Assembly (NCBI GenBank): GCA_958430865.1
Contig: CAUDNR010000511.1
Location: 2,349-30,397 of the forward strand
From: Entrophospora sp. SA101
Lineage: Eukaryota > Glomeromycota > Glomeromycetes > Entrophosporales > Entrophosporaceae
Length of the DNA stretch: 28,049 bases
Reading direction: 5' to 3'
Positions 135-28,049 of the stretch are shown here, in pieces (position 1 is the first letter of the stretch; each line of letters starts with the position of its first letter). A program made the translations under genes and the position numbers. The notes below the pieces were generated by a model, which saw nothing but the letters and a program-made list of their open reading frames with translations, made no database searches and was not told the DNA's origin.

Positions 135-262
135 CGATCAATGTTTAATATAAATTTTTTTATTTTGCTAAATCATAAATAAATTATAATTAGAGTGAGG
201 ATATATAAAATAAAATAAAACAGAAGTATGCTTTAAAAAAAATTGTAAAAGCACACGAAGAT

Positions 263-4140: not shown

Positions 4141-5756
4141 TCTGGAGGAGTACCTGAAGAACCTGTTGTTTCCAAAAAGTCAGAACAACTTTATGAAAAA
4201 AAGTTGATTATCAAATATATAGCTGAAACCGGAAAGAAACCTGTGACTGATGAAGATTTATCTGAGGAAGATCTATTAGAAGTAAAATCAAGTAAGCTTT
4301 TTAATATTTTTTTTTGGAAGAAAAAATTTTGATTAATAAATAAACATTTATACAACATGTTTGAACGAATGGTAGTTATGATGATATCAATTATTAAATA
4401 AACAACTAGAAGCTGTTTCTGACCAATTTTTATATGATTTAGAAATTTATCTGAACTTTATAATTTGTTATTATATATATATATATATAATATAGAATCT
4501 ATATATATATTATTTATCATTCATTTAATTGTAAAAAATTTTTTTTTCTTAATAATAATCAGGTACAAAGATAGTAAAACCTCATCCACAAACCTTTTCT
4601 TCCATTCCATCATTGCTGACAGCTTTTCAAAATGAATGAGATAGTTTACATTAGTAAATATCAAAGTTCAACCACCTGCAGATATGTCTATGTCTGAGAC
4701 ACAAAAGATGTAGGTTAATGAGGAGAAAGGCATAGGTAGTTCAATCATTTAAAAATTAGTAGAATCCAGTATAGTGTATATAATTTCTATTAACTAATTA
4801 TCATTTAATTATAAAAGAAATATATGCACATTCTAAAATTAAAGTTTACCCAATTAAAAAATTTTAAATTAGTTTATCAAAGGGATGTAAAAAAAGAAAG
4901 CCACCACCAAATCTTACACCTGCTGATACAATCAAAACATTTACTCAAATTTCTACAATTCCAGCTTTACACAATTCCTCAGTGCCTGGAATATTATTAT
5001 GTATGGATTTAGATCAAACAGAAAAATTAGTTCTAACAGGTGACGTTGACAAAAAGCATCGATTTATTATAATTGTAAAGAAGGTAAAGTAGTAAGTCAA
5101 TTGAACAACCATACAAATGGTTTGCGGAGAGAGAAAGACAAAGCTGGTGAATCAGATATTGTATTTACAGCAAGCACTGATAAAAGTGTTAGAATTTGGA
5201 ATAATACCAAAGAAGGTATTTATTTTCAAGTGAAAATATAAAATCTCAAAAAAAAAAAAATTTTTTTTTCTTAATAAAACCAGGATATAAAGCATCCATT
5301 GCCATTTCAATACACAATGCAGAAGTTACTGGTATAGCTTTAAACCCCACCAAAGATTATTTTATGTCAGTTTCTGAAGATTTAACCTGGGTTTTCATGA
5401 TATTGCTATTGCTCAAACACTGGTTAAATAGAAAATAGTGATGTAAAAGGTGGTTTGTATTTATATTTATTCGATTTTATTATATAAATAACCTATTTAC
5501 TCATGTATTTATATTATAATAAATGTATTGGAATATTCATGTGGAAATTTCATCCTGATGGTCTTATATATTAGGAACAGGTACAAATGATTCAATTGTT
5601 AGAATTTGGGATATAAAAGCACAACAAAATGTTGCAAAAATGGAAGGACACACAAGAAAAGTCAAATCATTGTCATTTTCAAAAAATGTATATTACTTAG
5701 CAACAAGTTCAGGAGATAATTTGATTAAAATATGGGATTTAAGAAAACAAAACAAA
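4141..5756 (+). pseudogene. PRP19: Decayed PRP19 (U-box/WD40 splicing factor and E3 ligase) pseudogene
   Basis: Translated fragments match Prp19 in order. The U-box (4141-4294) reads GGVPEEPVVSKKSEQLYEKK then KKPVTDEDLSEEDL. Next come SIPSLLTAFQNE, a central PPPNLTPADTIKTF segment leading to VPGILLCMDLDQTEKLVLTG, and WD40 pieces including [28 protein letters not shown] and FHPDGLI...GTGTNDS. Lesions are many. There is no start codon. The conserved Trp after FQNE is TGA (4637-4639). Frameshifts lie near 5055, in TGGGTTTTCATG near 5390, and at a TA insertion near 5570. The coiled-coil region around 4640-4880 is scrambled and the last WD repeats are missing. Intron-like GT-AG segments survive (4295-4562, 5216-5283), so it arose by DNA duplication, not retroposition. 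Prp19 is essential in yeasts, so an intact copy is presumably elsewhere. Confidence 0.88.
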
Positions 5757-6406
5757 TGTCCACACTCTATGTGTCTTTTATTATTTTATATTGTTGAAAT
5801 CAAACTATGGGACAGAAAATGTAGTGTCTCTCGGGTATTTCTGTATTTATTACAAGAATAATAATAAATAATTGGTATCGTTTTGCTTCTCATAATTAAT
5901 GTTAATATTAATATTAATATTAAATAATTAAAAGATGTCAAGGCAATACAACTGTTGCAGAAGGGAAACAATTCGATATGTGACATTTTCATAATCATAA
6001 ATTGGCAGATGTCAAGTTACTTGAACACTTTACAGTCATTCTCATACATTCCTTCTTCAAAATACTTCTTCTGATATAAATGAGGTTCATATTAACTATT
6101 GTTGTCCAGACAAATATCATAATCACATTATATTGTAATTGGTAATACAATTGTGGTGTTAAACATTCTTGATCCCTGAAATTTTTGATAATAATACAAA
6201 TGTTCACTTTGTCTGGTTTTGTTGCAAGCATGTCCATATTATGATACAGATACGTAATTCCGCATTTTATGATGTCAGTAATATTTTATATTTTTGGTAA
6301 TGATATTCGTGCCTGTTGTTTCTGAGACCTCGATTAGAAGTTTCCAGAGTCCCTCCTATAAATTTTAATTTGTGAAACTATATTTTTTCTAAACAAAACC
6401 TCTAAA
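5757..6406. other. Gap between PRP19 relic and GON7-like gene; holds a short shared segment
   Basis: AT-rich DNA without a supported gene. Around 5805-5820 the frame gives IKLWDRK, possibly a last WD40 scrap. 5898-5922 is an ATTAAT-type microsatellite. Positions 6199-6226, read on the minus strand, are identical over 28 nt to 24811-24838 on the plus strand. The final 100 bp before 6407 should contain the promoter and 5'UTR of the GON7-like gene. Confidence 0.45.
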
Positions 6407-6736
6407 ATGTCTGCCATAACAACAACAACAACAGTCCAAGCAACTTATTCAAAAAAACAAGATGATGAAAACAATTCTAAACCCTTAGTATTGAGAAAGT
6501 TTGAATATAATCTGAAGAAAGTTTTTAATGATAATGATAATGATAATGGTGATGATAATAATAATTATAACCAGAATAATGAAAAAAAAGAATTACATGA
6601 CTTATCAAATCTTTTGCTTTCAATGCAAAAAGATATCAATACATACCTAACAGATCAAATGAAAATAACTGGTGATGATTATAAGGATGTTGAAGAAATG
6701 GAGGAGGAAGAGGAGGGAGATGAAAAACTTAATTAA
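6407..6736 (+). CDS. GON7: Small acidic protein, candidate GON7 subunit of the KEOPS complex
   Basis: Single-exon frame of 109 residues. The N-terminus has a Thr run, then VQATYSKKQ. An Asn/Asp low-complexity stretch follows (about residues 41-60). A predicted helix LHDLSNLLLSMQKDINTYLT sits at about 63-83, and the tail is Glu/Asp-rich. The helix fits the fungal Gon7 pattern as I know it (an LxxLQxDIN-f/y-LT core followed by an acidic tail), and size and N-terminal ATY are also compatible. KEOPS makes the t6A modification of tRNAs, and Gon7 is its small, mostly disordered subunit. Short, low-complexity proteins are easily over-called; the alternative is an unrelated acidic hypothetical protein. 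The gene is convergent with the lipase gene, 207 bp away. Confidence 0.55.
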   Translation: MSAITTTTTVQATYSKKQDDENNSKPLVLRKFEYNLKKVFNDNDNDNGDDNNNYNQNNEKKELHDLSNLLLSMQKDINTYLTDQMKITGDDYKDVEEMEEEEEGDEKLN

Positions 6737-6943
6737 CAACATTTTTATTACAAGACTGTATCCTGCAATCATATTTTTATTTTGTCATTTTATCATATTT
6801 ATTAGAAAAACGTGAATTATCATTGCATACAATTGGTCATTATCATATTTTAATTCTTTGGCTACTAAAATTAATGGTTATGCAAAAAAAAATTTATTAA
6901 ATAAAAATAAAAATGGTTTAGTAAATGAAATGTTAAAAATGAG

Positions 6944-8898
6944 TCATTTGCTAATTCTTTCTATAATATCTAAATAATTTTTATAACCATTGAAAAATAA
7001 TAACTGTTGCTCACTGCCGGTCCAAACAGGAATCAAACTAAAGTGTGTTGTATTATCAACTTCCCAAACATACCATTTACCAGCTTCAAAATTTTCCTTT
7101 TCATAACCACATTCATTTTCTTTTGATGGTAGCCCTTTAAAATGTTTACATAAACCATCTTCACATTTGTAATGAGGATGTGATTGAGAAATTTTTGGAC
7201 ATACTCCATCATTCTCATACCATTTGTGTAATTCTTCTTGTGATAATGGTGGTGGAACATGATCTTCTGAAGATATTGTATTATCTTGAAATCGGAATCT
7301 ACCAATTCCATATGATAAAAAATAAATTGCTAATGGCAATGAAAAAGAAAAACTTGGCTTATGAAATTTTGTTATAGGATCTTCATGCGTCTATTAATCC
7401 CCATAGAAAAATAAGTTATATTTATAATATTAATGATAATGATAATAATAATCATTGGCATTTAATTTACCATTGATGCAGCATAGGTTCTGTAATAGGT
7501 ATTTTTAAAAGTTTTACTTGTTGAATTTAAATCATTCATTGCATGTATTGTCATATCATAAGGAGCATTATCTTTGAAATATAACCAAGGACTTTTAAAT
7601 AAACATTTTAATAATCCATGTTTACTAACACAAATATTATTTGAATTTTTGTTTAAAGATTCATCAATTTCAACCATTTCTTCACTTTCTTCATCATCAA
7701 CTTCTTCATTTGAATCATCATCATTTCCTTCTTCATCAATGTTGATATCATCATCATCTTGAATTTTAAGATCCAAACCATCATCTCCTTCCCTTTCTTT
7801 AAGATAATTAGAATCCTTTACTTTTTTACTTTGAAAAATATTAATTAAATATTCAGAAATTGTGCTGAATGGATTTATTTTAGTACTTTTTATTGTATTA
7901 AAATTCCAATGATCAACATTAAAATCATAAGTAACTTTTTTCAACCATTTAATGTCAAAATACTCATATAAATGAACAAATCTACCCAACCAACAACCAA
8001 ATGAAAATGGGCGAATTTCACCATTTCTTTTTGTAGTTGCTCCCAATAAATACACCCCTTGAGTACCTATTAAATATACATATAAATATATAAAATATGA
8101 TGATAAGATGTAAAATTATAAAAAACAAACCTTTGAATGGTGAAGAAACAGCCGTTAAAGATCTAATCATGTCAGGATGTGCATTATAAGATGATGGAAA
8201 TATATCACTTGCAAGCAATTGTTGAAGCTTCCATATAGTTGTACCACCCTGTACACATGTTAAAACAAACCGCAAAACTTATTAACCTCATTACAAAAGC
8301 AATATGAACTTATTTATCTAAAACTTACTAGTGAATGACCAAGAAAATGAAGAGGTTTAGAAACACTCCATTCTGAATATAATCCTATGATGATGTTTTT
8401 TTAAATATTGCTTGTCAGATTTTTATTATTTCAATATCTATTAAAAATTATAAATAAAACTTACCAGGATATTCACGTCCATATCGAGAATGACCAAATA
8501 ATTTAGAATGCTCTTCACCATAATCAACTATTTTATTTTAAAGTAAATACTACTAGCGTTGCATAACAAAAATGGCACTGTTAATACCTCTCTGCATTAA
8601 AATTATAATTACCTTTTCCACCTTTAATTTGATAAAAAATTTCAACAGCTCTGTCATGTAAAGAACTTCCACAACCAGGAGTAACAAATATGCAACTTCT
8701 GTTACTTTTTAGATTTGAATCATTTGTGGAAAACAATGATTCTAATGGACCCCAATAAGCTGGTTTACCAGGTCCCATGAAACCCTCAACGAAAACAACA
8801 GGATTCGGAAATATTTCATCATCATTGTTAATATTGTTGTTGTTTGTTTTTGTTCTTGAATCATTCAAAGATTGGTAATCAAAAAATTCAGGCGACAT
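6944..8898 (-). CDS. Family I.5-type lipase (alpha/beta hydrolase)
   Basis: Six exons (8898-8613, 8527-8465, 8384-8329, 8248-8131, 8066-7471, 7390-6944) give 521 residues; an in-frame ATG at 8934 would add 12. Near the N-terminus NPVVFVEGFMGPG is the oxyanion-region strand-turn. DYGEEHSKLFGHSRYGR precedes the nucleophile elbow GHSLGG (Ser134). WYENDGVCP holds the likely acid Asp434 and VDNTTHFSLIPVW the likely His489. These resemble the bacterial thermoalkalophilic (family I.5) lipases and their plant/fungal relatives, which hydrolyse acylglycerols or similar esters. There is no N-terminal signal peptide, so a cytoplasmic or lipid-droplet role is possible. The nucleophile elbow is split by an intron after Leu135. 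An acidic insertion sits at residues about 265-310. Confidence 0.88.
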
Positions 8899-9591: not shown

Positions 9592-9632
9592 TTTGTTATA
9601 AAATCAAATTTCTCGTTTTTACGGATATTTCG

Positions 9633-9674
9633 ATTTAGCGGATAAATTTCTTGGGCCAAACTTATCCGCTAAAT
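9633..9674. repeat. Inverted repeat with 13-bp perfect arms
   Basis: atttagcggataa (9633-9645) and ttatccgctaaat (9662-9674) are perfect inverted arms around a 16-nt spacer that contains gggcc. The structure would form a stable hairpin in otherwise AT-rich DNA. It may be a dyad binding site or the terminus of a small fold-back element. Confidence 0.6.
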
Positions 9675-9962
9675 TGAGATTCACTGTGTATTAAAATCTG
9701 CGATTGTGAAATGTCGTCCGACTATTATGAATCTCGAAAGCTGAAATGTTGCGGTCCCGCTCTTTTTTAGTGTACTAGTACTTTCTAATCATAGCGTTTG
9801 CGGTCACCTATCCTCCACTACAAAATTTGGCACTAGTAATGCTTATTTTTAACAATAAAAAATGGGCTACTTAAAAATATACAGTATCGTGTGATCTACA
9901 AGAAACTTTGTGTGACCATATTTTGCAAGCGGAGTTGGAAAAGTAGTATTGTTATTAACATG
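9675..9962. other. Gene-free stretch of relatively GC-rich repeat fragments
   Basis: No gene seen. Short motifs ttgcggtc occur twice (near 9743 and 9800), and cactacaaaattt (near 9818) recurs at the end of the fold-back around 12470. These suggest fragments of a shared repeat family. Confidence 0.35.
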
Positions 9963-10179
9963 GGTCTTTTCAATAGAAACGGATCATCCTGTGAAAAAAG
10001 CAATTTTGAGTTCCTCGTGTACAACATTTTTGCTGGTTAAAAATCCTCTCATCGACGACTATTTAATCAATATGCAACCATCCATTCAATCAAAAAATAA
10101 GTCGCATTAATTGAATTCGTAAAGTGGGTACAGTCCCTAAGCTACATGTGAGATATTCTTGTTTCCTATCGAAAAGACC
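9963..10179. repeat. 217-bp MITE-like segment with terminal inverted repeats
   Basis: The left end ggtcttttcaatagaaac (9963-9980) pairs with the right end gtttcctatcgaaaagacc (10161-10179), with one substitution and one single-base indel over about 19 nt. The interior has no open frame of note. No exact target-site duplication is visible, though both flanks contain attaa. A small non-autonomous DNA transposon is the simplest reading. Confidence 0.4.
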
Positions 10180-10870
10180 TATTAATTAATATATTTGCAT
10201 AAATTTCATTACTAATAAAGTTCAAACTGAATTCTGCCCTGGAAATATGACCATCTGCCCTGAAAGCAAATTACCACTAACTGCAAAAATACAATAATAG
10301 ACACATAACTAATTGTATTTATATTTGTAATAGGTTGACTAATATAAAAGTGAAAGCTATTAGATGAATTGTGAGAAAAAATGCCAAGAATTTTACTAAA
10401 TTCTTTTTTTGAAATACATGGAATTCCGTAATCTGTAATAATTCCATGGTTAATTAATATAGATGCTGGTCGCAATTCTTGGTGATGGTTGCAACCATAT
10501 TTGCGACATATAAAAATGGTTTGTGACACCTGGTTGCGACCACCTTTGCGACCACTTTGGTTTCCTTTTTTTGGATTGCGACATGGAACACTATTAATTA
10601 ATAAATTAAAAAATTTTAAAAGCAATAATTATTATTTTTGATAAAAGAATTTATCTGCAGTCTTGATTTTGGTTGATTGTATGTATCTGAATTATTTGTT
10701 AAATATAACTAATTAAGAGTATTCTGTAAATTTGATCCATCTGAAGCGTTTTTAATATCTACTATGAATGATTTTTTTTAAAATATATAAGTCCAATTGG
10801 GTGCTCTTTGGTTATGTAGTAAATAGTGTTCGTTGCCAAAATTATTTTGAAGAGACGAAAGTCAAAACAA
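10180..10870. other. Gene-free stretch with a hairpin and GTCGCAA-type degenerate repeats
   Basis: 10417-10425 and 10440-10448 (catggaatt / aattccatg) form perfect 9-bp inverted arms. Between about 10465 and 10582 the minus strand carries several spaced copies of gtcgcaa or close variants (for example ggtcgcaaaggtggtcgcaa), giving a repetitive Gly/Arg-rich frame on that strand. A long minus-strand open frame over 10212-10625 has mixed, unconvincing composition; I do not call it a gene. Confidence 0.4.
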
Positions 10871-10989
10871 AAATTAAAATTTATGTGTCAAAACTAAATC
10901 AAAAGTCAGTGATCAAAACTTACAGCGAAACCATTTGACTTTTGCACAGTTGCGAAACTCTCTAGTTCTGGAAACCAACGCTAATAGTG
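10871..10989. repeat. Dispersed repeat, copy B
   Basis: Related to 1-134 in the same orientation, sharing the blocks described for copy A. It lies 25 bp past the stop codon of the minus-strand frame ending at 11015. Confidence 0.75.
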
Positions 10990-11014
10990 AAGCATATCAA
11001 TTGTCATAAAAATT

Positions 11015-11203
11015 TTAAATTTGTAGTTGATTATTATCTAAATCGTTCAATAAATCAACTTCCTGTAGACTCGAATTTAAATCTTCATCATTATCATCTC
11101 TAATGTCTAAACTTGAAAATTTATCCATTGATTGAGCCAACTTCAACCGTAATTGCTTCTTTTTTACCATATTTACATATATCACTTGAAATTTCTCTAA
11201 CAA
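11015..11203 (-). pseudogene. Possible 3' exon of a decayed or incomplete hypothetical gene
   Basis: An open frame reads into MVKKKQLRLKLAQSMDK and ends in a charged, Asp/Leu-rich tail LNSSLQEVDLLNDLDNNQL. Composition (basic helix then acidic tail) looks coding, but no start-bearing upstream exon can be recognised between here and 11700. I do not recognise a family. The nominal start at 11203 is not an ATG, so if this is real it is an internal or terminal exon. It could equally be chance. Confidence 0.3.
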
Positions 11204-11696
11204 ATGAATGTCAAAGAAATTTTTTCTTTTGAACTTAGTACAAATAATGTGATCAATAGCATTTTATTCAGGGAAATTGCATTACCAAAATTAAAAAGTT
11301 TATTTAATAAAAAATACCTTTATTTTACTGTATGTTGTATAATAGTTGTTAATAGTTAATTTGAAAAATTCAGTACAAATAGCTAGTCTAAAAAGCAAAA
11401 CAAAAAAATCTATTTTTTAAACTTTGAGATAGACTTCACGATATGACTAATAGTGATGTTTTCGATCCATATTTTTATGCAAAAATCACCATCCTTATCA
11501 GTTTGTGACCTCTTCTGATGAAAATTTAATCTTAAAATACTCATTTACATAACTTTACAGAATTCCTCTATTGCTCCTTCAACGTCAAATTCTGGCACAC
11601 AAAACAATCGCTATAAATCACAATCACAACCGCAACAACAATCAATCTACAAACTCTAGATCATAATAACAGACAATACATATCAAATCTTTGATA
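11204..11696. other. Gap with a possible Ser/Gln-rich exon remnant
   Basis: Mostly AT-rich DNA. After a good 3' splice site (ttacag, ending about 11560) a plus-strand frame gives NSSIAPSTSNSGTQNNRYKS then a Gln-rich run, ending at a TAG near 11659. It may be an upstream exon or leader of the gene at 11697, but it does not join it in frame without lesions. Confidence 0.3.
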
Positions 11697-12355
11697 ATGG
11701 CTTCGTCTTTAGATGGTCCATCCTCTCCTTTGACCTCAACGCAATGTGTACAAAATGCAACCGCGACCACTACCAGAACAAATAATGTTGCATCAATAGC
11801 TTCACCCTTCTTTACTACTCCTCCAAATATTCCTGCAATTTTAATTAATCCTAACTGAGACATTTTGACAAGTAATTTCGATTTGCAAGAAATATTATCA
11901 CAATTTGAAACACAACCTGATCCATCAAAAATTATTTTAACTTTAAAAGTTGAAAGAGATAAACGTAGAGCAGAAGAAGCTAAATTGCGTGTTCGTGAAT
12001 TTGACCTAATACTAATGGATCGTCATAGGCAAAGAAGATTTGCGGAACACGTTGAAGGTATGGATGTATCCAATAATACTAATAATTATGAAGAGCAACT
12101 AATTCTTCTTAATAACGAACGTGGTAAAATTATTAATTATATTAATTGTAGATTTTTTAATTTTAACTTTTTAAAAACATTGAGGTTTTTTCTCATCAAA
12201 AAGATATTATTATAATAAAATTTGGGAATTTTCGAAATGCCAAGGTTCAAATTAGCAATAAAATTTGTCAGTTAACTTTTTTATTTTGTTATTAATTGAT
12301 TATTATAGATGATCCGCACCGTAATGTGGAGGATGCAATGAATTATAAAAAATAG
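11697..12355 (+). pseudogene. Hypothetical basic-helix protein gene with an in-frame TGA
   Basis: From ATG 11697 the frame gives 53 codons (MASSLDGPSSPLTSTQ..., Thr/Pro-rich), then TGA at 11856-11858. The same frame continues with DILTSNFDLQEILSQFETQ and a strongly charged helix (ERDKRRAEEAKLRVREFD, then MDRHRQRRFAEH). A GT-AG intron (12124-12308) joins to a short last exon ending NVEDAMNYKK and stop at 12355. Without the TGA the product would be about 156 residues. The helix suggests a coiled coil or nucleic-acid contact; I do not recognise a family. The stop may be a TGG-to-TGA mutation. Alternatively the ag in aactgag or acaag is a 3' splice site and the 5' part is a separate exon. Confidence 0.42.
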
Positions 12356-12480
12356 GGACCGCATCAGGGTTGGCAAATGTGTGGTCCATCGGATCCATTA
12401 GTGTACCATTTTAGCATATTTAGTAATTTATTAATAGCAATGGACCGGTCAATTTGCCAACCTTGGTCCGCACTACAAAA
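12356..12480. repeat. Fold-back (MITE-like) element abutting the stop codon of the upstream frame
   Basis: ggttggcaaatgtgtggtccat (12368-12389) is inverted relative to atggaccggtcaatttgccaacc (12440-12462), with mismatches only in the centre of the arms. Outer sequences gggaccgcatca and tggtccgcac also pair imperfectly. The loop is about 50 nt and AT-rich. The element begins within a few bases of the TAG at 12353-12355, so insertion may have defined the 3' end of the preceding frame. Confidence 0.55.
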
Positions 12481-12962
12481 TTTTCTAAATTAACCAAATT
12501 TAGAGATAATACAGTCTTTGTAATGAAGTCAGCAAGTAACTTAAACTTAGTATTAGGAGAATAGAATGAAATTACAATCGATTTGAATGTAAAATTTACA
12601 ACAGGAAAATTTTCAATAAAAAATAATGATAATCATTCAAATAAGACAAAAATGACAAAAACAAATGATTGATTGATTGATATGAACGGCGACGACGACG
12701 ATGATGTTGTTGATCAATCAAACCAATCAAATTGAATTGAATGAATGGCTGGATGCTCGATTGATTTTTATTATTGTTAATATTATTATTATTATTATTA
12801 ATTATTATTATTATATTATTATTAAATTTATTCAATTATTCTTTTAATTCTAAAATTTTTTACAAAAAAAAAAATAAATATTTTTTGAGTTTCTACAATT
12901 TTCATTTCGCTCCTGAAAAGATTTTACAATATACAAAATCTATTATTGCGTCTCAAAATAAA
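12481..12962. other. Convergent 3' region with ATT and GAC/GAT microsatellites
   Basis: No gene supported. It holds a cgacgacgacgatgatg tract (near 12690) and a long TTA/ATT microsatellite (about 12767-12830). Open frames over it on both strands are pure low complexity. It serves as the 3' flank of KEX1 (minus) and of the hypothetical gene at 11697 (plus). Confidence 0.5.
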
Positions 12963-15900
12963 TTAAACAAACAAATTATTTTTACTAGAATTCTTGTCGT
13001 CGTCGTCTTCTTCTTCTTCTTCTTTTTTATCAACTATAGCGGTATTTTCATCTTCTTCATTTTCACTATCTCCAAAATGATCAATATCATCTGTTTGGAA
13101 CAATGTAGCTTCTTTAGCTAAATCATCCCTGCAAAAAATATAATTATTTAATAATTAAAGTTTTAAAAAATAAAATTATTATAGTTAGTTGCTTGACTTA
13201 CAACTCATTGTTTTCAAGATCCAACACCATCTTTTGATTTGCCAAACTTTTTCTACGATTAAATATTTTCCCTCGGTAATTCCAAATAAGTATCAAAATT
13301 ATACCAACTATTAAAATAATAAGCACGATTGTTCCATGACTATATAAAATGATAATAAATAATAAATAAATAAAGATTATTTATTATTTATTAGATAGAT
13401 TACTTTCATTTTCGTTTTAATTGCTATCATTATATTTACATATACAATATATGTATATTTATTACACAAAAAATTAAATTCTTACGATTGACGCTGTTCG
13501 TCTGAATCTTGATTGTGTTCATTATTTTTATTATCACTATCTTCTCCATTATCGTAATCACCTTGCACATTTGGTTGCTCCTAAAAAAAGGAAAATTATA
13601 TTAGTAAATTTTGTAAAAAATTTATGTTGACTGTTTCCACAATAAAAGTTCCTTATAATTGTATATGAATATATTAATAAATTAATTACCTTTATACCAA
13701 TACTTGAAGTAAAATTAGCTATTATATCATCATGGATTCCAATAAATCTATAAATCATATCCATAGTTTCAACAGGTACATCATATGGCACCATATGACT
13801 TGTATTGTAAACAACAATGTATGTAAGATTTCTCTCAGTAGTCATTTCGCCAACAACTTTATCATTTATATACCAAGGTTTTGATACTGCATCCTAAAAA
13901 TTACATGCATATCGTAGATAAATAAATGAGTGAATGAATCGATGGATAGTGAGAATAAAATAATAATGGTGGTGGTGGTTGGTAGTGGTTAATAAAGTTT
14001 TCTAATTTTACCTTAAAACCTTTATATCCGTTCCATTCTAACTTCTTTACCATATCTTGTGTTCCATATATGTTACATATTAAATCTTTATCCCCACTAA
14101 AACATACATGTAGATAAATAAACACAATAAATACAATATAATGATAAAAATTATGTGAAAAATTTAATACAAACTTGTATAATAAAACATTGATTTGTTT
14201 TAAAAGATCAGGCATTAACTAGAATAATAGTAAATTAGTATTAACACATAATAATTGATATATTTAGTTTATATATGTGTGTGATAACACATACTGTAAC
14301 AGAGGGAGGCGACATGTCTTGATCAAAGCCAATGCCAACTTTAGAATTACATTCCACCCATTTAAGTTTATTTGTATTAGCATGTATGGCATCAACAACG
14401 TCTGGTCGCTATTAATAATGATTCTAATTAAATATTTTAGAATCTAATTTAAAATCATTTTGTTTTTATTATTTTCTTAAAAAAAATTAATATTACTCTT
14501 AAATATTTGTAAATTGTAGGAAGCTCGTAAGGCCAATTCATTCCACAAGAAGGATAACTGTCATTATGATCACGAATATCATATTGATTTATACATGTTT
14601 CTCTGGTTCCTTCTCTACTCTCAAAAAAAATTTTTTTATTAACAGTTTTTATAAAATGAATTAATAAATATAATATAATATTTACCGTCTACGAGAACCA
14701 CTTAAGATTGTGACTAAAACTTTTTCACATGAATATACATGAATGGCAAGACTTTCCTGCAAATCTTTCATACAGATTCCTAATTGCTCATATGCAGCAG
14801 CCTATTATAGTAATAATGATAATGGTAATAATAATATTGTTACAATTGATAATATAATTCTTTTTGGTTTATTGTCGTTGTTTTTTTACCTTGGTTTTTT
14901 CATCCATAATATTCTGGTCCACTGCAAATGTGTAATATGCATTATACTATTGTATTAATAGAAAGTAATAATTATAACATTAACAATAAAGAAATATTAA
15001 AATATTAGAAATATAAAACTTATAGTTATATAATAATTACCTGACTTATAGGATCAAACCATCCATTACCAATTGCTATTCCTTTTAAATTATACTAATA
15101 TTAAAGAAAAGTAAAAGTTTAGATTAAATAAATAGTTTGTTATACTTTTTCCTTCAGAACAAAAAATATATTAATATTAACCTTGTGATAATCGGGTGTT
15201 TTCCTGGCATGATTCCGATCTAATATAGCTTTTGCTATATAAGGTATATATGTTCCTGCAAAACTTTCACCTGCTAAATAGATCTTCAAAATAGTGAATA
15301 TAAATGATTTTAATATTTTTTTATATTATTATAATGACAATCAATAACCATAACAATAACGATATATACATCATCATTGGAAAATTCCGGAAATATCCCA
15401 TAAAACTGATCTAAAAAGGTTAAAAATTGGTTTGAGACCTAAATGAATATTTTGTAATTAATTGGTTTGTTTTTTTAATCTTGGCAAAAAATTCTCATAT
15501 AAAAAAATTCATATATATATTACTTGTGTCAAATTGTTTAAATAACCATCGGAATCAGTAAAGCTAAACCCTGTGCCCACAGGCTGATCGACTTTTTTAT
15601 TTGATATAATAATAATTGTGAAGAAAGTTACTACATTTGTAGATATTAATAATCACAATTAATATGATTATAATAATCACAACAATTAAATACCATATAA
15701 AACATTTGCATATTCATTCCATGAACCATCGATTAACCTTAATGTTTGATCTGAATTGATTCTCCAAGGTCCATTTTCAAGAAATACACCATCCATACTA
15801 TAAAAATCGACAAGAATTAATAAGATTAAATCCTAGTGAATAAAAAAAGAAAATACTTTATTTTTATTTCATTACCTTGAACTAAATGAGATTATCAAAT

Positions 15901-18761: not shown

Positions 18762-19597
18762 TTAAATCGGCTTAATCTTAAATAAAAAAAACAAAAATAA
18801 AATTTATTATTGTTATTACCGTAATATTAAAACATACAAATATAAATATAATTACCTTAAAATGTAAACTGATCAAAGAAAATACTAAACATTTAAGATC
18901 TTGCACTAAATAATAAAAACTTCTTAAACCTTCAGGATCTTCACTTTCTTGAACGTCAACAAGTGATCCAATCTTGGCAGTCTAAATAATTTCATATATT
19001 GTTGTAGTAATAATATTAATATATCAACATTATTGATTATTATTAATCTAATATCTAACCTCAAAAGAAATATGTTCATTTCCTAATCTGATCTCAAGTT
19101 CTTGCCTACCAACAACATTCTTTTTAGGCCATCGATGATCATCTTCACTATAAAGATATATATATATAATTTATATAGTGTTTATCTATATATATAATAA
19201 TGTTTTTTAATCTTACTTCATTATATTACTTTCTTTGATAATTTCTTTCAATTCTTTCATCATTAAAGGACTAACGTACACTTTAAAAAAAAAAAACCAA
19301 AATAACATTAGAGAATCAAATCTGTAGAAACTTTTTACACTAATCCCTAGTTAATGCTTACTCTCTTTTCTTATTAAACTGTCATTTCTATAATTTGAGT
19401 GGTTAGCATAACGACATCTTCCATCAGCACAAAACTCAAACTCTAAAAATTCATGTCCATATCTACCTTTATGACCAGTACTTATTCAAAAATTATATTT
19501 TTTATTACATTTAGATCGATTAATGAACTAAAACAATTATATGGAAATTGAAAAATACATACTAGTAACGAATGTAGAATTCCTCGTCGTTTACCAT
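18762..19597 (-). CDS. mago: Mago nashi, exon junction complex core subunit
   Basis: Six exons (19597-19563, 19480-19362, 19280-19217, 19147-19060, 18981-18856, 18776-18762) give 148 residues, the normal length. Motifs read [74 protein letters not shown], then [20 protein letters not shown] and the C-terminal KIKPI. The last exon is only 15 nt (IKPI and stop). Mago pairs with Y14 to clamp eIF4A3 on spliced mRNA. It is divergently paired with the F-box/WD40 gene. Exon 1, the first 27 nt of exon 2 and the upstream promoter are duplicated at 26067-26210. Confidence 0.96.
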
Positions 19598-20272
19598 TTT
19601 TTTTATAGACTAAAATATTAATTTTATTTATTTTTTATAGATCAAAAAATATTAGTTGCACAAGTTAACAAATTCATCTCCACAAAATTGAATACAATGT
19701 GAAAATTATAACAATTAAATATATAACAAACAAATATCTTTCTTTTTTTTTTATCATCTCCTCCCTCTTTATTATCAATTCTATATACTCTCTTTAGTTT
19801 TTTTTTTTTTATAATTCAAAAGATAAATTCTGTTAAATATATAAACTCTCCCAATTTTGCATTATATATATCATCCCTCCCTCCCTTGAATTTAAAAGGT
19901 AATGGTGATAATAAACATTTTGCTTTTTTTTTTTTTTTCTAAAAAAAGACTTTTTTTTAATTTTCTTTTAAAAACTATAACTTAACAAAATGTTTTTTAC
20001 CAACAAATTTCATCAATTTTAGATTAATTTATTATTTATAGTAAAACATTACTATCGAAACAAAAATAAATAAACACAATCATCGTATTTTTAGTGAATA
20101 TTATTTTTAAAAAATAATGAAGGGCCCAAAATCAGCACTCATGGGAAGTAAACAAAAAATTTTAAAAATATTTACAAAAAATACTAATCATAATAAACAA
20201 TCTGTTGTTACCTCTTCCTCCTCTTCCCCCTCCTCCTCCTCTTCGCCGTCATCATCATCATCACCGTCATCA
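19454..20272. repeat. 819-bp direct duplication, copy 1 (mago/F-box divergent promoter)
   Basis: Identical by eye to 26067-26885 at a constant offset of 6613, with no substitution or indel found, even in the T and A homopolymers. It spans from mago codon 20 (exon 2) through mago exon 1, the 519-bp divergent promoter and the first 52 codons of the F-box gene. Identity stops abruptly at both ends; the right end is in a TCA-type microsatellite. Confidence 0.95.
19598..20116. promoter_or_regulatory. Divergent mago / F-box-WD40 promoter
   Basis: 519 bp between opposing start codons. It has two strong pyrimidine tracts on the plus strand (around 19740-19815 and 19870-19890, ctccctccc-type), and poly-T and poly-A runs around 19924-19960, features typical of nucleosome-depleted fungal promoters. 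No single TATA box stands out. The whole segment recurs unchanged at 26211-26729. Confidence 0.6.
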
Positions 20273-21797
20273 TCTACCAATAATAACGGCAATTGTAATT
20301 ACAACAATAATAATGTTATAGAAACATCACCACCAAAAAAAGCTGTAACTATCACCAACACTACAGCTATTACAAAAAGATTAACAGGAATTGCTAATAA
20401 AATTAATATCAACACAACCACCACAAATAATAACGTTGTTAACAATATTTTAGATAATAATTTGGATGATGTTGACGAAGGATTTTATACATTAGATGAA
20501 AAGACTCCAAAAATCGGTAAAAAAATTTTTTTATGATCATCATCATACATAATTTTTAAGTAAAAAAAATTTGTGATGTAATAAATAATGTAAAACATAT
20601 TTATTATGATTTTTTTGTTCAGACTACTTAACACGACTCCCTTACGAAATGGCATCATATATATTACTATATATTGATTTACAAACATTATGTAGAATGT
20701 CACTTGTATCTCGTACCTGGTATCGTATATCAAGAGATAATGAAATATGGCGTAGAAAATTTTTATCAAACGAAGGATGGAAAGTGAATATTCCAAAAGA
20801 AATTTTAATATCTGGCGGAATTGATTGGAAGTTACTATACAAGAATAGATATACGCTATCATTGAAATGGAAGAAAGGCGAATGCGAAAAAAAATATTTG
20901 AAAGGTCATGTAGATAGTGTCTATTGTATTCAATTTGATGAAAAAAAAATAGTCACTGGATCAAGAGATAAAACCATCAAATTTTGGGACATTAACACGG
21001 GAATTTGTTTCCAGACATTACATGGACATGATCTTTCAGTATTATGTTTACAATATAATGACAAAATAATGGTAACTGGATCGAGTGATTCTACTATAAT
21101 TATTTGGGATATGAGTAATATTGATAAAGTTATAAATAATAATAATAATAGTGATAACAATCAATGTGTTAAACAGATAATGAAGCTGAATGGTCACTCA
21201 GCAGGTGTTTTAGATATATGTTTTGATGATAATTATATTGTATCATGTTCAAAAGATTGCACAATAAAAGTATGGAATGTTATTACTGGGGAATTAAAAA
21301 GAACATTATATGGTCATTTCGGTCCTGTGAATGCTATACAACTTAAAGATAATAGAATTATATCAGCTTCTGGCGATGCATTAATAAAATTATGGGATCT
21401 AAATACCGGTGTATGTATAAGAGATTTTGTTGGTCATACACGCGGGCTAGCATGCGTACAGTTTGATGGTAGATGGGTGGTGTCAGGATCAAATGACAAA
21501 ACCATCAAAATATGGGATGTGGAAACTGCTCAGTGTGTACGTACACTTGAGGGTCATACCGATCTGGTAAGAACTTTACATTTTGATGAGAATATGGTTA
21601 TCAGCGGAAGTTATGATCAAACTGTTAAAGTATGGGATCTTAAAACTGGTAAACAACTATTGGATTTTCATGAAGGTCATACCAGTTGGGTGTTTGATGT
21701 ACAATTCAACAGGACCAAAATTGTTAGTACAAGCCAAGATAAGAAAATATTAATGATGAATTTTGCTGAAGATTTAGATACAAAATATTTATTATGA
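20117..21797 (+). CDS. F-box/WD40 protein (SCF substrate receptor, Cdc4/Fbw7-like)
   Basis: Two exons (20117-20516, 20623-21797) give 524 residues. Residues 1 to about 130 are low complexity (Ser-Pro runs, then Asn/Thr-rich). The F-box follows at about 134-180 (YLTRLPYEMASYILLYID then SLVSRTWYRIS and NEIWRRKF). Residues about 220-515 hold seven WD40 repeats, for example GSRDKTIKFWDINTG, GSNDKTIKIWDVETA and GSYDQTVKVWDLKTG, forming a complete propeller. Such proteins link phosphorylated substrates to Skp1-cullin1 ubiquitin ligases. Which subfamily it belongs to, and its substrate, cannot be told from sequence. The first 52 codons are shared with the START gene at 26730 through the 819-bp duplication. 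Confidence 0.92.
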
Positions 21798-22324
21798 TGA
21801 ATTAATTATGTTGATTATCATCAATGTTTGATAAGAAAAAATTCTTTTATTTAGAAAAATAAAATATCTTTACACCTTCTCAAAGCAATTTTTTTAGGGG
21901 CTTTTTTTATCATATAATATTTTATATATTTTAATATTTAAAAAAATTTATCATCATTTTTTTTTTTAAATATTCTTTTTGTATTTCCTTTACTATTTCT
22001 AATTATCATATATCACATTCCTTCACTATTCAAATTTTTTTTAATTTATTTATTGGAAAGTCATTAAATTAGGGATAATATTCTATTTATTTGTAAATTT
22101 TTATTATTTGTAATTATTATTATTATTATTATTATTATAATGAAAAAATTCATCGATAGCCAAATAATATTTTCAAAATCTTTTTATTATATTTTACAAA
22201 ATAAATAAATAAATGACAATACAACACACTTAAATATTAAATACAATTTTATAATTAATAAAAAAGAAAAACAATAAATAAAGAATAATTGATTGATTAT
22301 AAATATCTCTCTCCTATATTACCA
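21798..22324. other. Convergent F-box/PLAC8 intergenic region
   Basis: 527 bp of AT-rich 3' flanking DNA with homopolymers and an ATT microsatellite (about 22113-22138). Nothing else seen. Confidence 0.5.
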
Positions 22325-23045
22325 TCACATAGCATTTGCTTCTCGATTTTCTTGTATTAATGCACAGTAACTAAAACAATAATGTGTACACAAATCACCA
22401 GCTCCAGATCCCTAAAAAATTAATAAAATTAATAAAATTTTAATTTCAAAATAAATTTTTTCATCATAAAAATAATAATTTGATTAATTACCTCAATGTT
22501 TAATTGGGTACGCATTTCATTACGATTCAAAGGTCCAACAACACATCCCACAAAAGCGTAAAGCAATCCATTAACGAGACATGCACTTTCATCATTAAGC
22601 ATTCTAGCTTTTGTTTCACCCTAGTAATAGATAATAGAGAATATATGAATAAATGATGATAGGTATTTTACTAATTAGACAGTGCTATTTTATTGAAATA
22701 TTCACTTACATAAGTAACGCATGGACAACAAAAAGTCTTAAGGACTAAAAAATAAAAATAAAAAATTGAAATTAATTTAAACCTGTTTTTTTAATTGAAT
22801 TAATAACTTATAATATGCTTACATAAATTCGAGTCAGCAAAACAATCAAATAACCCAAATCTCCATTCTCTTGGTCCATTATTATTATCATATACTTCTT
22901 TTACCGGTGGTGCTCCTGTAGGTTGTTGCATTTGAGGTGTTTGTTGGTAATTCATTGGAGGTGTTTGTGGTCCACCGCCGAATTGTGACTGGTTTGGTGG
23001 TTGTGAAAAATTTTGATACATTACTGGTGGTGGTTGATAAGTCAT
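22325..23045 (-). CDS. PLAC8-family cysteine-rich protein
   Basis: Four exons (23045-22823, 22744-22710, 22620-22492, 22411-22325) give 157 residues. The N-terminal 60 residues are Pro/Gln-rich (QPPPVMYQNFSQPP...). The PLAC8 domain follows, from REWRFGLFDCFADSNL through the signature LKTFCCPCVTYGETKARM, a hydrophobic segment with LLYAFVGCVVG, then RTQLNIEGSGAGDLCTHYCF and CALIQENRE. Family members include plant FCR/PCR proteins and fungal relatives, linked to membrane-associated cell-size or metal/calcium traits. The specific role here is unknown. The Pro/Gln-rich head could mediate protein contacts. Confidence 0.92.
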
Positions 23046-25005
23046 TTGTGAAAATATGAATATGAAATTTAGGAATGAAAGAAAATAATTTCAAAATTTA
23101 TACAAATTGTGTGCAATTTATTTTATTTTATTTTTTTTTTTTTTAGAAAAAAATTTTTTTTTTACTTTTTTATTATTTGAATGTTATTGTTGTTATTGCT
23201 GTGTACATTTTTCAAAAAGAGAAATCGAGTTTTATCTTTTTCCCAAAAATAAACAAACATATAAATAAAGTGAAATTTTATGAACATCCTATTAAGTTCC
23301 TTAAACGTAAATTGCATTCCACGTGATTATGAGGCTAAAATTGGAGTCCATATTAATATTAATATGGTGCTATAATGATTTTGACATCCCAAAATTGCAA
23401 CAGCGTGAATAAATTCAGTTGTCAAGGTGTAACATTGTTATCCAATCAAATTTTGATTTCTGGAGAGTCTCTAATTTGTACTAATTACACAACGAAATTC
23501 TGAATTGCTACATTTTTATTTTATTATTAATAATAAGCAATTCATTACTTTCCGGAAATTCCGTCAACGCCAAATCATTTTAATTTATTATTATCTTAAT
23601 TCCCCCAAAAATGGAAGTATAAATACCAAATCGTAATTTTGAAGTTAATCTACGTACGACTTCATATTTGATCGGCCAATTTCACATACGTACAACGTAT
23701 CTTTTATTTCAATTTCGTCAAATTCATAATTTTTTCAGGAACCAATTATATTCGATAATTTCATAACTTTTCATAGCATAGTAGACATTGGATTTCATTG
23801 GCTAAATTTCGTGATATCATGCAATAATTAAATTTTTGGCTTGAAGATCGTTACGCAATTTGAAAACGGAATAAATTTATTTAGTTTGAATGGAATCAAA
23901 TGAATTTCAAGTTGATGCAAGAATATGCATACACACTTGGGTGGTAGAAGTAGTCATCATATCTATTATATTAACAATAAATCTACAATTGTTATAAAAT
24001 GTTAATAACAATGATCTATTATTTATATATAATAATAATACGTTCTTTACTTAATATAGTTAATTGGAGTAATACGAGTTAATAGGATGATAATAACGTT
24101 CTCTAATTAGTCAAAATGTCCTACTTTCAAAAAAATTTTTTTTTAGAAACTAAATTATATATATGCACATTGATGACCGTTGTAATAATTGAATATTATC
24201 AAACTTCCTGCTAGTACATTGTTCCTTTAAAGATAGACATATATATATGCATGTATGTTTAAATAACCAAAAATTTAGTATATCAAGTTTATATATATAA
24301 CAAAAAACTTGATCACGATACAAAAAAAATAAATAATAATATTTACAAGTGAGAGTTTATACCTTCCATCACAGATGACTTTATCCTATTTTTCTTTCTC
24401 TCCATCTCTTGTCAATAATAATGATTGTTGTGATCAAAAGAGGATGAACAAGAAGGTATAACGTTAATACGCGGTCATGCTTATCATAAATGTTTGGAAC
24501 TTTATAAAAAGGGTGTTGTCACAAATGTAAAATCCTATATAATAATAATAGACTAGAAAAAGATAATCCTGAGCCTAGAACGTCTTACAATATACTTACG
24601 TTGATCACTAAAGCTTGAAATATAGTTCCTATGTAACCCTTCAAAAGCGACTTGATCATTTGATCATTTTTCACACACATACTGTGAACATAGAAAGCAA
24701 AATATACGCGTTAAAAAAATGTATCATAGGTTAAACAAGTTTTTATGCGCAATCACACCCTGTTTTCAACATAAAAAAGATCAACGATCGATTTGTCACA
24801 TGGGACATACTGCAACAAAACCAGACAAAGTGAACATTATATTGCACACATTACAGGGAACAAAATTTAGTGTAATTGTGATAATATTAATATTAATATT
24901 AATGTATTTTTTTAATTATAACCCTAACTAAATAAGCTTTTTTTGTTTAAAAAAAAGAAAATCCAATAAAAATTAAAAAAAAACATCATCAACTCATCAA
25001 CCCCC
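23046..25005. other. Gene-poor 2-kb region with repeat fragments
   Basis: Nothing convincing as a gene. Notable items: a perfect 20-bp palindrome at 23348-23367 (ccatattaatattaatatgg); a CACGTG site near 23321; AT microsatellites around 24160-24300; a degenerate RING-like frame at about 24443-24549; and a 28-nt segment (24811-24838) identical to the minus strand of 6199-6226. The frame 24719-24931 around that segment ends in low-complexity Ile/Leu and is not called a gene. Confidence 0.45.
24443..24549 (+). pseudogene. Possible relic of a RING-type zinc finger
   Basis: An open frame reads DEQEGITLIRGHAYHKCLEL then YKKGVVTNVKSY before a stop. GHAYHKC resembles the Cys-Gly-His...His...Cys core of RING domains, but the first Cys is Arg (CGC), the Cys pairs that should follow are missing, and there is no start. 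The match is short and family membership is tentative. Confidence 0.25.
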
Positions 25006-26210
25006 TTAACCACGAATATTTAGTACTAATCCAATATCTTCTTTTGACAGCGTTGCTCGTTTAGCATGAATTGTACATAGTCGACTGATGATGATAATGG
25101 GGAAGAAGTTTTTTTTATTAATAGTAATATTGTTAATAGAATAAATAGAATCATTATCTTTTTACAGATTGAAAATTATTAAATCAACTTACACATCCTG
25201 AAACAACTCAATTAAATATGTCTCAGCAGCTAATTAAAAAAAAAATATAATATTATACACACACATATAAATTCACAAATTCATACATGTAGGATTCAAT
25301 CAAAAAATAAATCAATTAATTACCTTCTTGAAGTGCTGTAATGGCTGTGGATTCAAACTCAAATCCCATATTAGAATGTTGTTGAAATATGTTTGTGGCA
25401 ATTTCTTCAACCTATACATATATATACATAATGATTAATTGACTAGTATTTGTATATTAAATGATTATTAATAATGTAATAATAATCTTCTGATCACTAA
25501 CTACTCTAGAAAAAGGTATTCTTCTTAGAAGAAGATTTGTTGTTCTTTGATGTCGTCTGATTTCATTTAAAGCTATATTATATGGCCTGTACCTTGGTGG
25601 TTTTGTGTAAAAGCCTGTTTTTTATTTTAAAATAATCATTTAGCCACTTTTACAAATTGATATGCAAATAATTATTTAAGCAAATTCAATTGGTTGAATT
25701 TTATACACATCTTTAAAAATCAGCACTTACATCTGGTATTTGTTGATTCATTTAAATTATTTGTCAGGTCCATTAGATCATCACCATCATTGCTATCATT
25801 ATCATCCTTTGTAGACATAATGATACTGGTGGTAGTTACAATTTCTTGTCTTTCCTCTTCATCTTTTTCTACTATATTCTCCAAAACAACAACATCATCA
25901 ATACTATCTTCTTGGTTTATTTTCCCTTCATTGTCATCCTCTTCCTCTGATATCTGCAGATCCTGTAATATTGATGCAAATATTAATATTACAATTTTCT
26001 AAAATATAAATAATAATTAATAAACAAGAATAACTAAAAAATACCTCTATATTATTGTTATATAATTGTCCATATCTACCTTTATGACCAGTACTTATTC
26101 AAAAATTATATTTTTTATTACATTTAGATCGATTAATGAACTAAAACAATTATATGGAAATTGAAAAATACATACTAGTAACGAATGTAGAATTCCTCGT
26201 CGTTTACCAT
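25006..26210 (-). CDS. CENPA: CENP-A-like centromeric histone H3, with a mago-derived N-terminus
   Basis: Seven exons (26210-26176, 26093-26045, 25962-25731, 25614-25502, 25411-25324, 25229-25193, 25084-25006) give 210 residues. The histone fold (about 106-210) reads RYRPYNIALNEIRRHQRTTN, LLLRRIPFSRVVEEIA, TALQEAAETYLIELFQDV and RLCTIHAKRATLSKEDIGL, ending NIRG. Helix order and LCTIHAKR are clearly H3-like. Loop 1 (NIFQQHSNMGFEF) is about five residues longer than in canonical H3, and the tail (29-105) is acidic, not the H3 ARTKQ tail; both point to CENP-A, which marks centromeric nucleosomes. Residues 1-20 are identical to mago because the 5' end lies in the 819-bp duplication. An internal in-frame ATG (25818) would give a 134-residue form. 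Exon 4 uses a GTTAGT donor. Confidence 0.75.
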
Positions 26211-26885
26211 TTTTTTTATAGACTAAAATATTAATTTTATTTATTTTTTATAGATCAAAAAATATTAGTTGCACAAGTTAACAAATTCATCTCCACAAAA
26301 TTGAATACAATGTGAAAATTATAACAATTAAATATATAACAAACAAATATCTTTCTTTTTTTTTTATCATCTCCTCCCTCTTTATTATCAATTCTATATA
26401 CTCTCTTTAGTTTTTTTTTTTTTATAATTCAAAAGATAAATTCTGTTAAATATATAAACTCTCCCAATTTTGCATTATATATATCATCCCTCCCTCCCTT
26501 GAATTTAAAAGGTAATGGTGATAATAAACATTTTGCTTTTTTTTTTTTTTTCTAAAAAAAGACTTTTTTTTAATTTTCTTTTAAAAACTATAACTTAACA
26601 AAATGTTTTTTACCAACAAATTTCATCAATTTTAGATTAATTTATTATTTATAGTAAAACATTACTATCGAAACAAAAATAAATAAACACAATCATCGTA
26701 TTTTTAGTGAATATTATTTTTAAAAAATAATGAAGGGCCCAAAATCAGCACTCATGGGAAGTAAACAAAAAATTTTAAAAATATTTACAAAAAATACTAA
26801 TCATAATAAACAATCTGTTGTTACCTCTTCCTCCTCTTCCCCCTCCTCCTCCTCTTCGCCGTCATCATCATCATCACCGTCATCA
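26067..26885. repeat. 819-bp direct duplication, copy 2 (CENP-A-like/START divergent promoter)
   Basis: Identical by eye to 19454-20272 including homopolymer lengths. On its left it joins the CENP-A-like gene inside the mago-derived exon 2; on its right it joins the START gene within the Ser-Pro run, right after codon 52. Both junctions keep the reading frame. Confidence 0.95.
26211..26729. promoter_or_regulatory. Duplicated divergent promoter (CENP-A-like / START)
   Basis: Sequence equals 19598-20116. If the assembly is right, this centromeric histone gene and the START gene are driven by the same elements as mago and the F-box gene, so all four would be expected to have similar expression patterns. 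Confidence 0.6.
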
Positions 26886-28049
26886 CCTATTACTGCTACA
26901 CCGACTAAAATTCCATTTTCACCTCAAATTCCAACTGCAACCCCAATTCGAAATACTACGTCTTCAAAAAAAAAATATGTTAAAATTCCTGAAAAGAATA
27001 GAGCGACACATCGTCATTCCGAGACATTACGTGCAGCAATAGACAACTTCAAATCACAAGCAAGGTCGTTGGATGGATGGAATTTCTATTCGAATGATAA
27101 AGGTGTTAAAATCTACACCAAAGATGTTGGCGGTAAATCTATACCAATGATACGAGGTGAATCAAGAATCTCTGGTGGATTTACTGTAGAAGATATCTTG
27201 TCGATTATAAATAGTGTAGAAATGAGAAAGATATGGGACGAGAGGTTTGAAGATAGTGTTGTATTGGAGAAATTGAATCACTTTGATAGTCTAGTCAAAT
27301 CTGTGATAAAAGGCTCATTTTCGATAAGGTAATATGTGCGTGCTTGTTTATATATACATATTTTGTTACATTGATAATAATAATAATAGATATAAATATT
27401 TTCTCATAATGTTATAGTGGAAGAGATTTGTCATTGGCATCTTCGACAGAATATGATTTTGAGACTGGAATAGTTAGATATGTATCAACATCAGTAATAG
27501 ATCCATTGATCCCAGAGACCAAAAAATATGTCAGGGCACAATTAGATTTTGCAGGTTTTGAATTTGCATCAAAGTTTGATGATGAGGGATTTACAAAATA
27601 TGTGGATATAAAATACATTGCGGACATTAACGCCAAAATTGACACAGTTCCATCCATAATCCTCAGACAAGTTTCCATTCAGACTCCAATTATACTTAAC
27701 AGGATCGACGAGTTGTTACAAAAAAGTGGATTCCCGCCCTATGTTAGAGAATCGACATCACAAACTTCGATGAAATCATGTGTGGTCAACACGAAAACAT
27801 TTGAATGTGACATTGAGGTGGTAGATGTTTTTGGTGGTGCGGTTACCGAGTTAAAAACTTCAAGAAAGATGTATCCTAATGGATATGAGTTAACCATCAA
27901 ACCTGAAAATGTAAAGGTTGAATTATTACCGAGTAAATTTGAGCTTGTTCGTATAATGTTTCCAACTGGAAATGATTATACAAATATGTTGAAAATTAAA
28001 ATCAAAAGAAATACATCTAAAGGAATAGATTTTATTTATAATGTTGGAA
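26730..28049 (+). CDS. START-domain lipid-binding protein, 3' end outside window
   Basis: Exon 1 is 26730-27328 (199 codons plus 2 nt). Exon 2 starts at 27418 and remains open to the window edge. Residues 1-52 equal the F-box protein's N-terminus (Ser-Pro runs). A Pro/Thr-rich stretch and a basic patch (SSKKKYVKIPEKNR) follow. The START domain begins about residue 110: LDGWNFYSNDKGVKIYTKDV, GGFTVEDILSIINSVEMRKI, SVVLEKLNHFDSL, then after the intron SSTEYDFETGIVRYVSTSV. A further beta-rich region continues to the edge. START domains hold a single lipid in a helix-grip pocket; fungal members have been tied to lipid transfer. The ligand cannot be predicted. The true ancestral start may differ from the duplicated one. 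Confidence 0.85.

What the first reader, a model, noticed from the sequence alone, without database searches (positions are those of the whole stretch)
19454..26885. Identical 819-bp duplication of a bidirectional promoter driving two unrelated gene pairs
19454-20272 and 26067-26885 match base for base in my line-by-line comparison, at a fixed offset of 6613. Each copy contains a full divergent promoter plus the first coding bases of both flanking genes. Copy 1 drives mago and an F-box/WD40 gene; copy 2 drives a CENP-A-like histone gene and a START gene. Both junctions of copy 2 keep frame. Promoter capture that rewires two genes at once is rarely seen this clearly. Perfect identity, even in homopolymers, means either a very recent event or gene conversion, or an assembly chimera.
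Basis: seen in the sequence. Interest (0 to 1): 0.92.

Follow-up and report, generated by a model that had tools for sequence, protein, structure and literature searches.

The report
Duplicated promoter, likely amplification chimera
In a DNA contig of the root-symbiotic fungus Entrophospora sp. SA101, an 819-letter stretch spanning the shared start region of two genes appears a second time, letter for letter, joined in frame to two other genes, but the join is likely an artefact of how the DNA was amplified and assembled, so it would be unsafe to read it as a natural rewiring of genes.

Summary
Copy 1 is native: it holds the canonical start of mago and an F-box/WD40 5' exon that a paralogue shares. 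Copy 2 is derived. On its left it breaks into a CENP-A-like gene whose relatives on two other contigs carry a different, longer 5' half. On its right it runs, through 23 shared bases, into the second half of a longer START gene whose intact copy is on another contig. That START piece differs from it only at the sixth base from the contig end, and the contig stops after 1,164 bases. Both fusions keep frame, the right one because both genes read the shared serine repeat in the same frame.

The strain's published data come from phi29-amplified nuclei with merged assemblies, and some contigs I examined contain other near-identical duplicates and abrupt joins. I judge copy 2 most likely an amplification chimera (0.5) or an assembler mis-merge (0.17). 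A real, very recent rearrangement remains possible (0.3). Reads across the two junctions, or PCR on unamplified DNA, would settle it.

The parts
19454..20272 (.). Copy 1 of the 819-bp segment, native: divergent promoter region plus mago 5' exons (minus strand) and F-box/WD40 5' exon (plus strand)
   Evidence: exact identity with copy 2; mago aligns with solved mago structures from residue 5 on; F-box N-terminus shared with paralogue on C12
26067..26885 (.). Copy 2 of the 819-bp segment, derived
   Evidence: flanking genes have other 5' parts in their relatives elsewhere
18856..19597 (-). mago nashi gene, native (ATG at 19597; very short last exon not placed)
   Evidence: (PF02792, E 4.1e-75)
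20117..21797 (+). F-box/WD40 gene, native (ATG at 20117)
25006..26066 (-). CENP-A-like histone gene, 3' part, diverged from the C1264/C25 copies (12 mismatches to C1264 plus indels over 24800-26066); C1264 and C25 carry a different 5' half beyond 26066
   Evidence: (PF00125)
26066..26067 (.). left junction: blunt, 0 bp shared
   Evidence: read by eye from the printed sequences
26863..26885 (.). 23 bp common to the 819-bp segment and the native START gene on C735 (right junction)
26886..28049 (+). second half of a longer START gene, identical to C735 except base 28044; cut by the contig end
25006..26210 (-). fused mago/CENP-A-like open reading frame, 210 aa, 7 exons
26730..28049 (+). fused F-box/START open reading frame (NCBI model 24734_t:CDS:2, partial, splices over the junction)

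Best explanation
Copy 2 and the START piece after it are copies, identical but for one base, of DNA that sits elsewhere in the same assembly, joined to a CENP-A-like gene at the very end of the contig, and this join is likely a template-switching chimera made by phi29 polymerase when the fungal nuclei were amplified, then carried into the assembly. Inferred steps: a growing strand that had copied the CENP-A-like gene lost its template, re-primed at the mago/F-box locus 6.6 kb away, copied 819 bases, then slipped through a shared serine-codon repeat onto the START gene. Shown: the sequence relations, the junctions and the contig end. Not shown: that the switch happened in the tube rather than in the fungus.
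For: The strain (C. claroideum/C. luteum SA101) was sequenced from 24 single nuclei and from pools of nuclei, all after multiple displacement amplification, with merged or scaffolded assemblies; the authors report duplications made by one workflow. About 2 kb of copied sequence has one difference, at base 28044, the sixth from the contig end, while the neighbouring CENP-A-like piece differs from C1264 by 12 mismatches plus indels. The sequence that follows the START piece was found at one place, C735; the other matches to it are pieces of a paralogue on C1324 and short repeats. The right junction shares 23 bp; in the reference study over 70% of phi29 chimeras re-primed at 2-21 nt. An 819-bp perfect repeat exceeds the 150-base reads used (inference). 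Some other contigs show near-perfect duplicates: C12 tandem 98.8% over 7.4 kb with a run of N between the copies, C1324 inverted 99.96% over 7 kb, C1650 with an abrupt join after 383 bp identical to the window's left end.
Against: Both fusions keep frame and strand. The right one follows from the shared repeat; the left one is 1 in 3 for frame alone and perhaps 1 in 30-40 if falling inside exons on the same strand is counted (my rough estimate, not computed). The left junction has no microhomology, whereas 90.9% of direct phi29 joins under 10 kb had some. The 819-bp jump is direct and under 10 kb, a rare class (11 of 475). Two switches within 819 bp are needed. The exact pipeline behind this 101-Mb assembly was not identified; its size and contig number match no row of the published table. 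The same self-comparison found no duplicate over 300 bp in C735 or in the fetched pieces of C1264, C25 and C1930.
Confidence: 0.5

Rival explanations
1. A real and very recent rearrangement: a break in the CENP-A-like gene was joined to the START gene with an 819-bp templated insertion from the nearby mago/F-box locus, as in microhomology-mediated break-induced replication. It may be carried by only some nuclei, and it may or may not do anything.
For: Donors stay intact; 23-bp shared sequence at one junction; both fusions open and in frame; templated insertions that start chromosome fusions are documented in human cancer (PMC8421209, abstract).
Against: Zero differences over 819 bp including T runs of 10, 13 and 15 leave little time (inference); the contig stops 1,164 bp later; no independent continuation of the START copy was found; amplified source DNA.
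Confidence: 0.3
2. A purely computational mis-merge: consensus merging or scaffolding of single-nucleus assemblies pasted the three pieces together, with no chimeric molecule.
For: Two of the published workflows merge contigs by motif spacing, and the authors report duplications from one of them; redundant copies within C12 and C1324; identical-sequence join in C1650.
Against: The left junction has no overlap at all, and overlap-based merging normally needs one.
Confidence: 0.17
3. Gene conversion between two old copies of one bidirectional promoter keeps them identical.
For: Perfect identity of the two copies.
Against: Relatives of both recipient genes lack the segment and have their own 5' parts; only two full copies found.
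Confidence: 0.03

Closest known systems
Chimeras of multiple displacement amplification (PMC1855051, passages read)
   Same: Abrupt joins of near-perfect copies; shared sequence at the right junction; the strain's published DNA was phi29-amplified
   Different: Most known ones (406 of 475) are inverted; the 819-bp jump here is direct, under 10 kb, with a blunt left junction
Templated insertions by microhomology-mediated break-induced replication (PMC8421209, abstract and outline)
   Same: A copied stretch from a nearby template sits between two joined loci
   Different: Not shown to exist in native DNA; one junction is blunt
Promoter capture by segmental duplication, NPEPPS-TBC1D3 in human (preprint PMC12871316, passages read)
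   Same: A partial gene copy with its promoter lies upstream of an unrelated gene and could make a fusion transcript
   Different: There the duplication is over 100 kb, about 8.9 million years old and backed by long transcripts; here it is 819 bp, two-sided, undated and without transcripts

Membership tests
phi29 amplification chimera | DNA was amplified by multiple displacement amplification | tested here: inconclusive
   True of the SA101 data described in PMC6987183, but this particular assembly could not be matched to a row of its Table 1
phi29 amplification chimera | copied pieces identical to their source | tested here: met
   819/819; START piece one difference in 1187, at the sixth base from the contig end
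phi29 amplification chimera | short complementarity at the junction (over 70% of cases) | tested here: inconclusive
   23 bp right, 0 bp left
phi29 amplification chimera | mostly inverted joins | tested here: not met
   the 819-bp copy is direct; 69 of 475 published chimeras are direct, so this feature is typical rather than required
phi29 amplification chimera | absent from unamplified DNA | not testable with these tools
   no reads or samples
templated insertion / break-induced replication | copy of a nearby template between two joined loci, donors intact | tested here: met
templated insertion / break-induced replication | present in native chromosomes | not testable with these tools
   no reads and no other isolate of the strain
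promoter capture | downstream gene transcribed from the captured promoter | not testable with these tools
   no RNA data; NCBI model P0002 is a prediction, and the published annotation used no RNA
CENP-A (CenH3) | H3-type histone fold with longer loop 1 and divergent tail | tested here: met
   PF00125 E 3e-24; best solved chains are H3.3 and the centromeric histone cnp1; 5 extra residues in loop 1 against H3.3 in the printed alignment; the loop criterion is recalled; centromere location untested
double-START gene | two START domains in the native gene on C735 | tested here: inconclusive
   P0001: one stretch, residues 30-205, E 7e-23; the second half alone (P0002) scores 20.5 bits, below Pfam's cut-off of 22

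The most novel reading that the evidence does not exclude
A real two-sided promoter capture: one templated insertion of a divergent promoter with both first exons put a centromeric histone under the mago promoter and a lipid-binding START protein under an F-box gene promoter at once, both in frame, possibly private to some nuclei of one coenocytic fungus.
Probability: 0.12. Interest if true: 0.72.

Novelty: not a real feature. Interest (0 to 1): 0.22.

Why it matters
If artefact, it warns that gene fusions and duplications read from assemblies of amplified single nuclei can look perfect and in frame, and that NCBI already carries a resulting fused gene model (P0002). If real, it would be a two-for-one rewiring event caught almost at birth, and it would bring in the open question of how much nuclei within one mycorrhizal fungus differ in structure.

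Tried and rejected
Gene conversion: rejected because the recipient loci show no homologous segment to convert. Redundant contig of the whole locus: rejected because the mago gene was found at one place only and copy 2 has different flanks. Retrocopy: rejected because the mago intron is kept in copy 2. Transposon carriage of the segment: no third full copy was found. The repeat scan (seed 16, at least 40 bp) reported inverted pairs touching the segment only as 70%-complementary low-complexity arms near its right end; shorter element ends were not searched for.

Searching for the fusions in other data: the fused START query found 5 proteins (from the 7,983 candidates scored); I read all 5, and only P0002, which lies on a contig of the window's length, carries the F-box start. 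The fused mago/CENP-A-like query found 11 proteins; I read 8 of 11 and none has the mago start; the other three are not labelled SA101. Papers: no paper in the library holds both 'Entrophospora' and 'SA101', and PRJNA528883 is in one paper only, so the exact assembly version stays unidentified; a 2024 paper on these fungi has no hit for SA101, Entrophospora or claroideum. A search on bidirectional promoter capture listed 10 of 55 papers; from their titles and abstract starts I saw no exact parallel. Templated-insertion and CENP-A searches: listings seen only, apart from the papers named.

Large random sampling of the assembly for a chimera rate was planned but not possible. The examples of near-identical duplicates come from contigs met through homology hits, so they are not a rate, and some fetched pieces showed none.
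Full report
WHAT IS THERE. The finding is exact. Window 19454-20272 equals 26067-26885 base for base (819/819); the next base differs on each side, and a local alignment adds only four more columns with one mismatch. The T runs of 8, 10, 13, 15 and 8 are identical too. In the assembly that holds the window (101.3 Mb, 2,123 contigs; the window is the right part of contig C469 and ends where the contig ends), 2 of 9 matches are full length, both here.

WHICH COPY IS NATIVE. Copy 1 is. Its left side holds the first 62 coding bases of mago (ATG at 19597, 35-nt exon, 82-bp intron, 27 nt of exon 2), continuing into a mago gene (PF02792, E 4.1e-75; solved mago chains; one place in the genome). Its right side holds 52 codons of an F-box/WD40 gene (ATG 20117). 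A paralogue of that gene on contig C12 (91% and 87% nt identity over 649 and 553 bp of the body) shares part of the upstream region and the N-terminus, KIMKSPKSTLIGSKQKILRLFTKNS against KIMKGPKSALMGSKQKILKIFTKNT. So both halves of the segment belong to copy 1.

WHAT COPY 2 IS JOINED TO. Left: a CENP-A-like histone gene on the minus strand. Window 24800-26066 matches contigs C1264 and C25 (96% overall; 12 mismatches to C1264 plus indels), and the match to both stops exactly at 26066. C1264 and C25 continue there with a different, longer 5' part, and agree with each other over about 0.9 kb beyond; the NCBI model P0076 of the strain reads through that point. Right: 26863-28049 matches contig C735 with one difference in 1187, at base 28044. 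In C735 this is the second half of a longer START gene. That long arrangement looks ancestral: a paralogue on C1324 matches on both sides of the junction at 80-82%, and Entrophospora candida (P0007) and a second SA101 protein (P0006) cover the full 700 aa. The first START domain is clear (E 7e-23), but the second half alone scores 20.5 bits against a Pfam cut-off of 22. The window's START piece lacks the first half, and the contig ends 1,164 bp after the junction.

JUNCTIONS AND FRAME. Left, 26066/26067: no shared base on either side. Right: 23 bp, CATCATCATCATCACCGTCATCA, shared between the 819-bp segment and C735; it encodes serines and a proline in the same frame in both genes, so the right fusion is in frame as a consequence. 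The left fusion is in frame by a 1-in-3 event: mago [20 protein letters not shown], then QLYNNNIE and the rest of the histone, 210 aa over seven exons. The histone fold is complete (PF00125, E 3e-24); its best solved relatives are H3.3 and the centromeric histone cnp1, with five extra residues in loop 1 against H3.3.

WHERE IT COMES FROM. Protein hits name the source as Entrophospora sp. SA101 (taxonomy). The window's fused START model is held by NCBI as 24734_t:CDS:2, partial, on a contig of 28,049 bases, the window's length; its predicted intron removes the junction itself. The strain was sequenced by Montoliu-Nerin et al. 2020 (PMC6987183; outline, passages and section 14 read). Twenty-four single nuclei were amplified with phi29 and sequenced as 150-cycle pairs; Nanopore reads came from amplified pools of nuclei. 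Assemblies were merged or scaffolded, genes were predicted without RNA, and the authors describe duplications made by one workflow. No row of their Table 1 matches 101.3 Mb in 2,123 contigs, so the exact version is not identified.

WHY AN ARTEFACT IS LIKELIEST. About 2 kb of consecutive sequence (819 + 1,158 bases up to the one difference) is copied from two separate places without a difference, whereas the adjoining histone piece is clearly diverged from its relatives. The copied part is the last 7% of the window. The stretch that follows it was found once, on C735; other matches to that stretch are pieces of the C1324 paralogue (78-89%) and short repeats. The repeat is longer than the reads that built the contigs (inference). 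Some other contigs carry near-perfect duplicates: C12 tandem 98.8% over 7.4 kb with a run of N between the copies, C1324 inverted 99.96% over 7 kb. C1650 holds 383 bp identical to the window's left end and then jumps back to a 96% copy of window 185-470. These are examples met through homology hits, not a measured rate. In the same comparison C735 and the fetched pieces of C1264, C25 and C1930 showed no internal duplicate over 300 bp.

WHAT SPEAKS AGAINST THAT. In the reference study of phi29 chimeras (PMC1855051, passages), 406 of 475 are inverted and direct joins under 10 kb are 11 of 475. Here the 819-bp copy is direct, 6.6 kb from its source, and its left junction is blunt, while 90.9% of direct joins under 10 kb showed complementarity. 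Two switches in 819 bp are needed. Both fusions have matching strands and frames. I therefore keep 0.3 for a real recent rearrangement by template switching in the fungus, and within it 0.12 for the bolder form in which the captured promoter works.

VERDICT. Observation confirmed; promoter capture not shown. Most likely an in-vitro chimera (0.5) or assembly mis-merge (0.17). The test is simple: reads or PCR across the two junctions.

Noticed in passing
window 1-383: Identical to C1650:102733-103115, which then jumps back to a 96% copy of window 185-470: another abrupt perfect-identity join, involving the other end of this contig.
   Followed up: partly
window 9605-13794: 99.95% identical (2 mismatches in 4190) to C640; the left edge of the match is where C640 carries a pogo/Tigger-like transposase gene (label by recall).
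   Followed up: partly
window 1792-8600: 97% identical to C777:10887-17809, perhaps a second haplotype or a recent duplicate.
   Followed up: no
window 25006-26066; C1264, C25, C1930; P0073-P0076, P0080, P0082: CENP-A-like genes occur in several similar but rearranged copies in SA101, one (P0073) with a tandem internal repeat; the one E. candida hit (P0077) is 57% identical.
   Followed up: partly
window 23773-24799: Dispersed repeat, 69-97% alike in pieces on many contigs, next to the CENP-A-like gene; the match of that gene to its relatives stops at about 24800.
   Followed up: no
L040 upstream of base 4634: Insert with terminal repeats CAGTGTTGGAAATTC...GAATTTCCAACACTG near the 5' part of the CENP-A-like gene on C1264, like a small inverted-repeat element.
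   Followed up: no
C12 and C1324: Redundant copies within one scaffold: tandem 98.8% over 7.4 kb in C12 and inverted 99.96% over 7 kb in C1324.
   Followed up: yes
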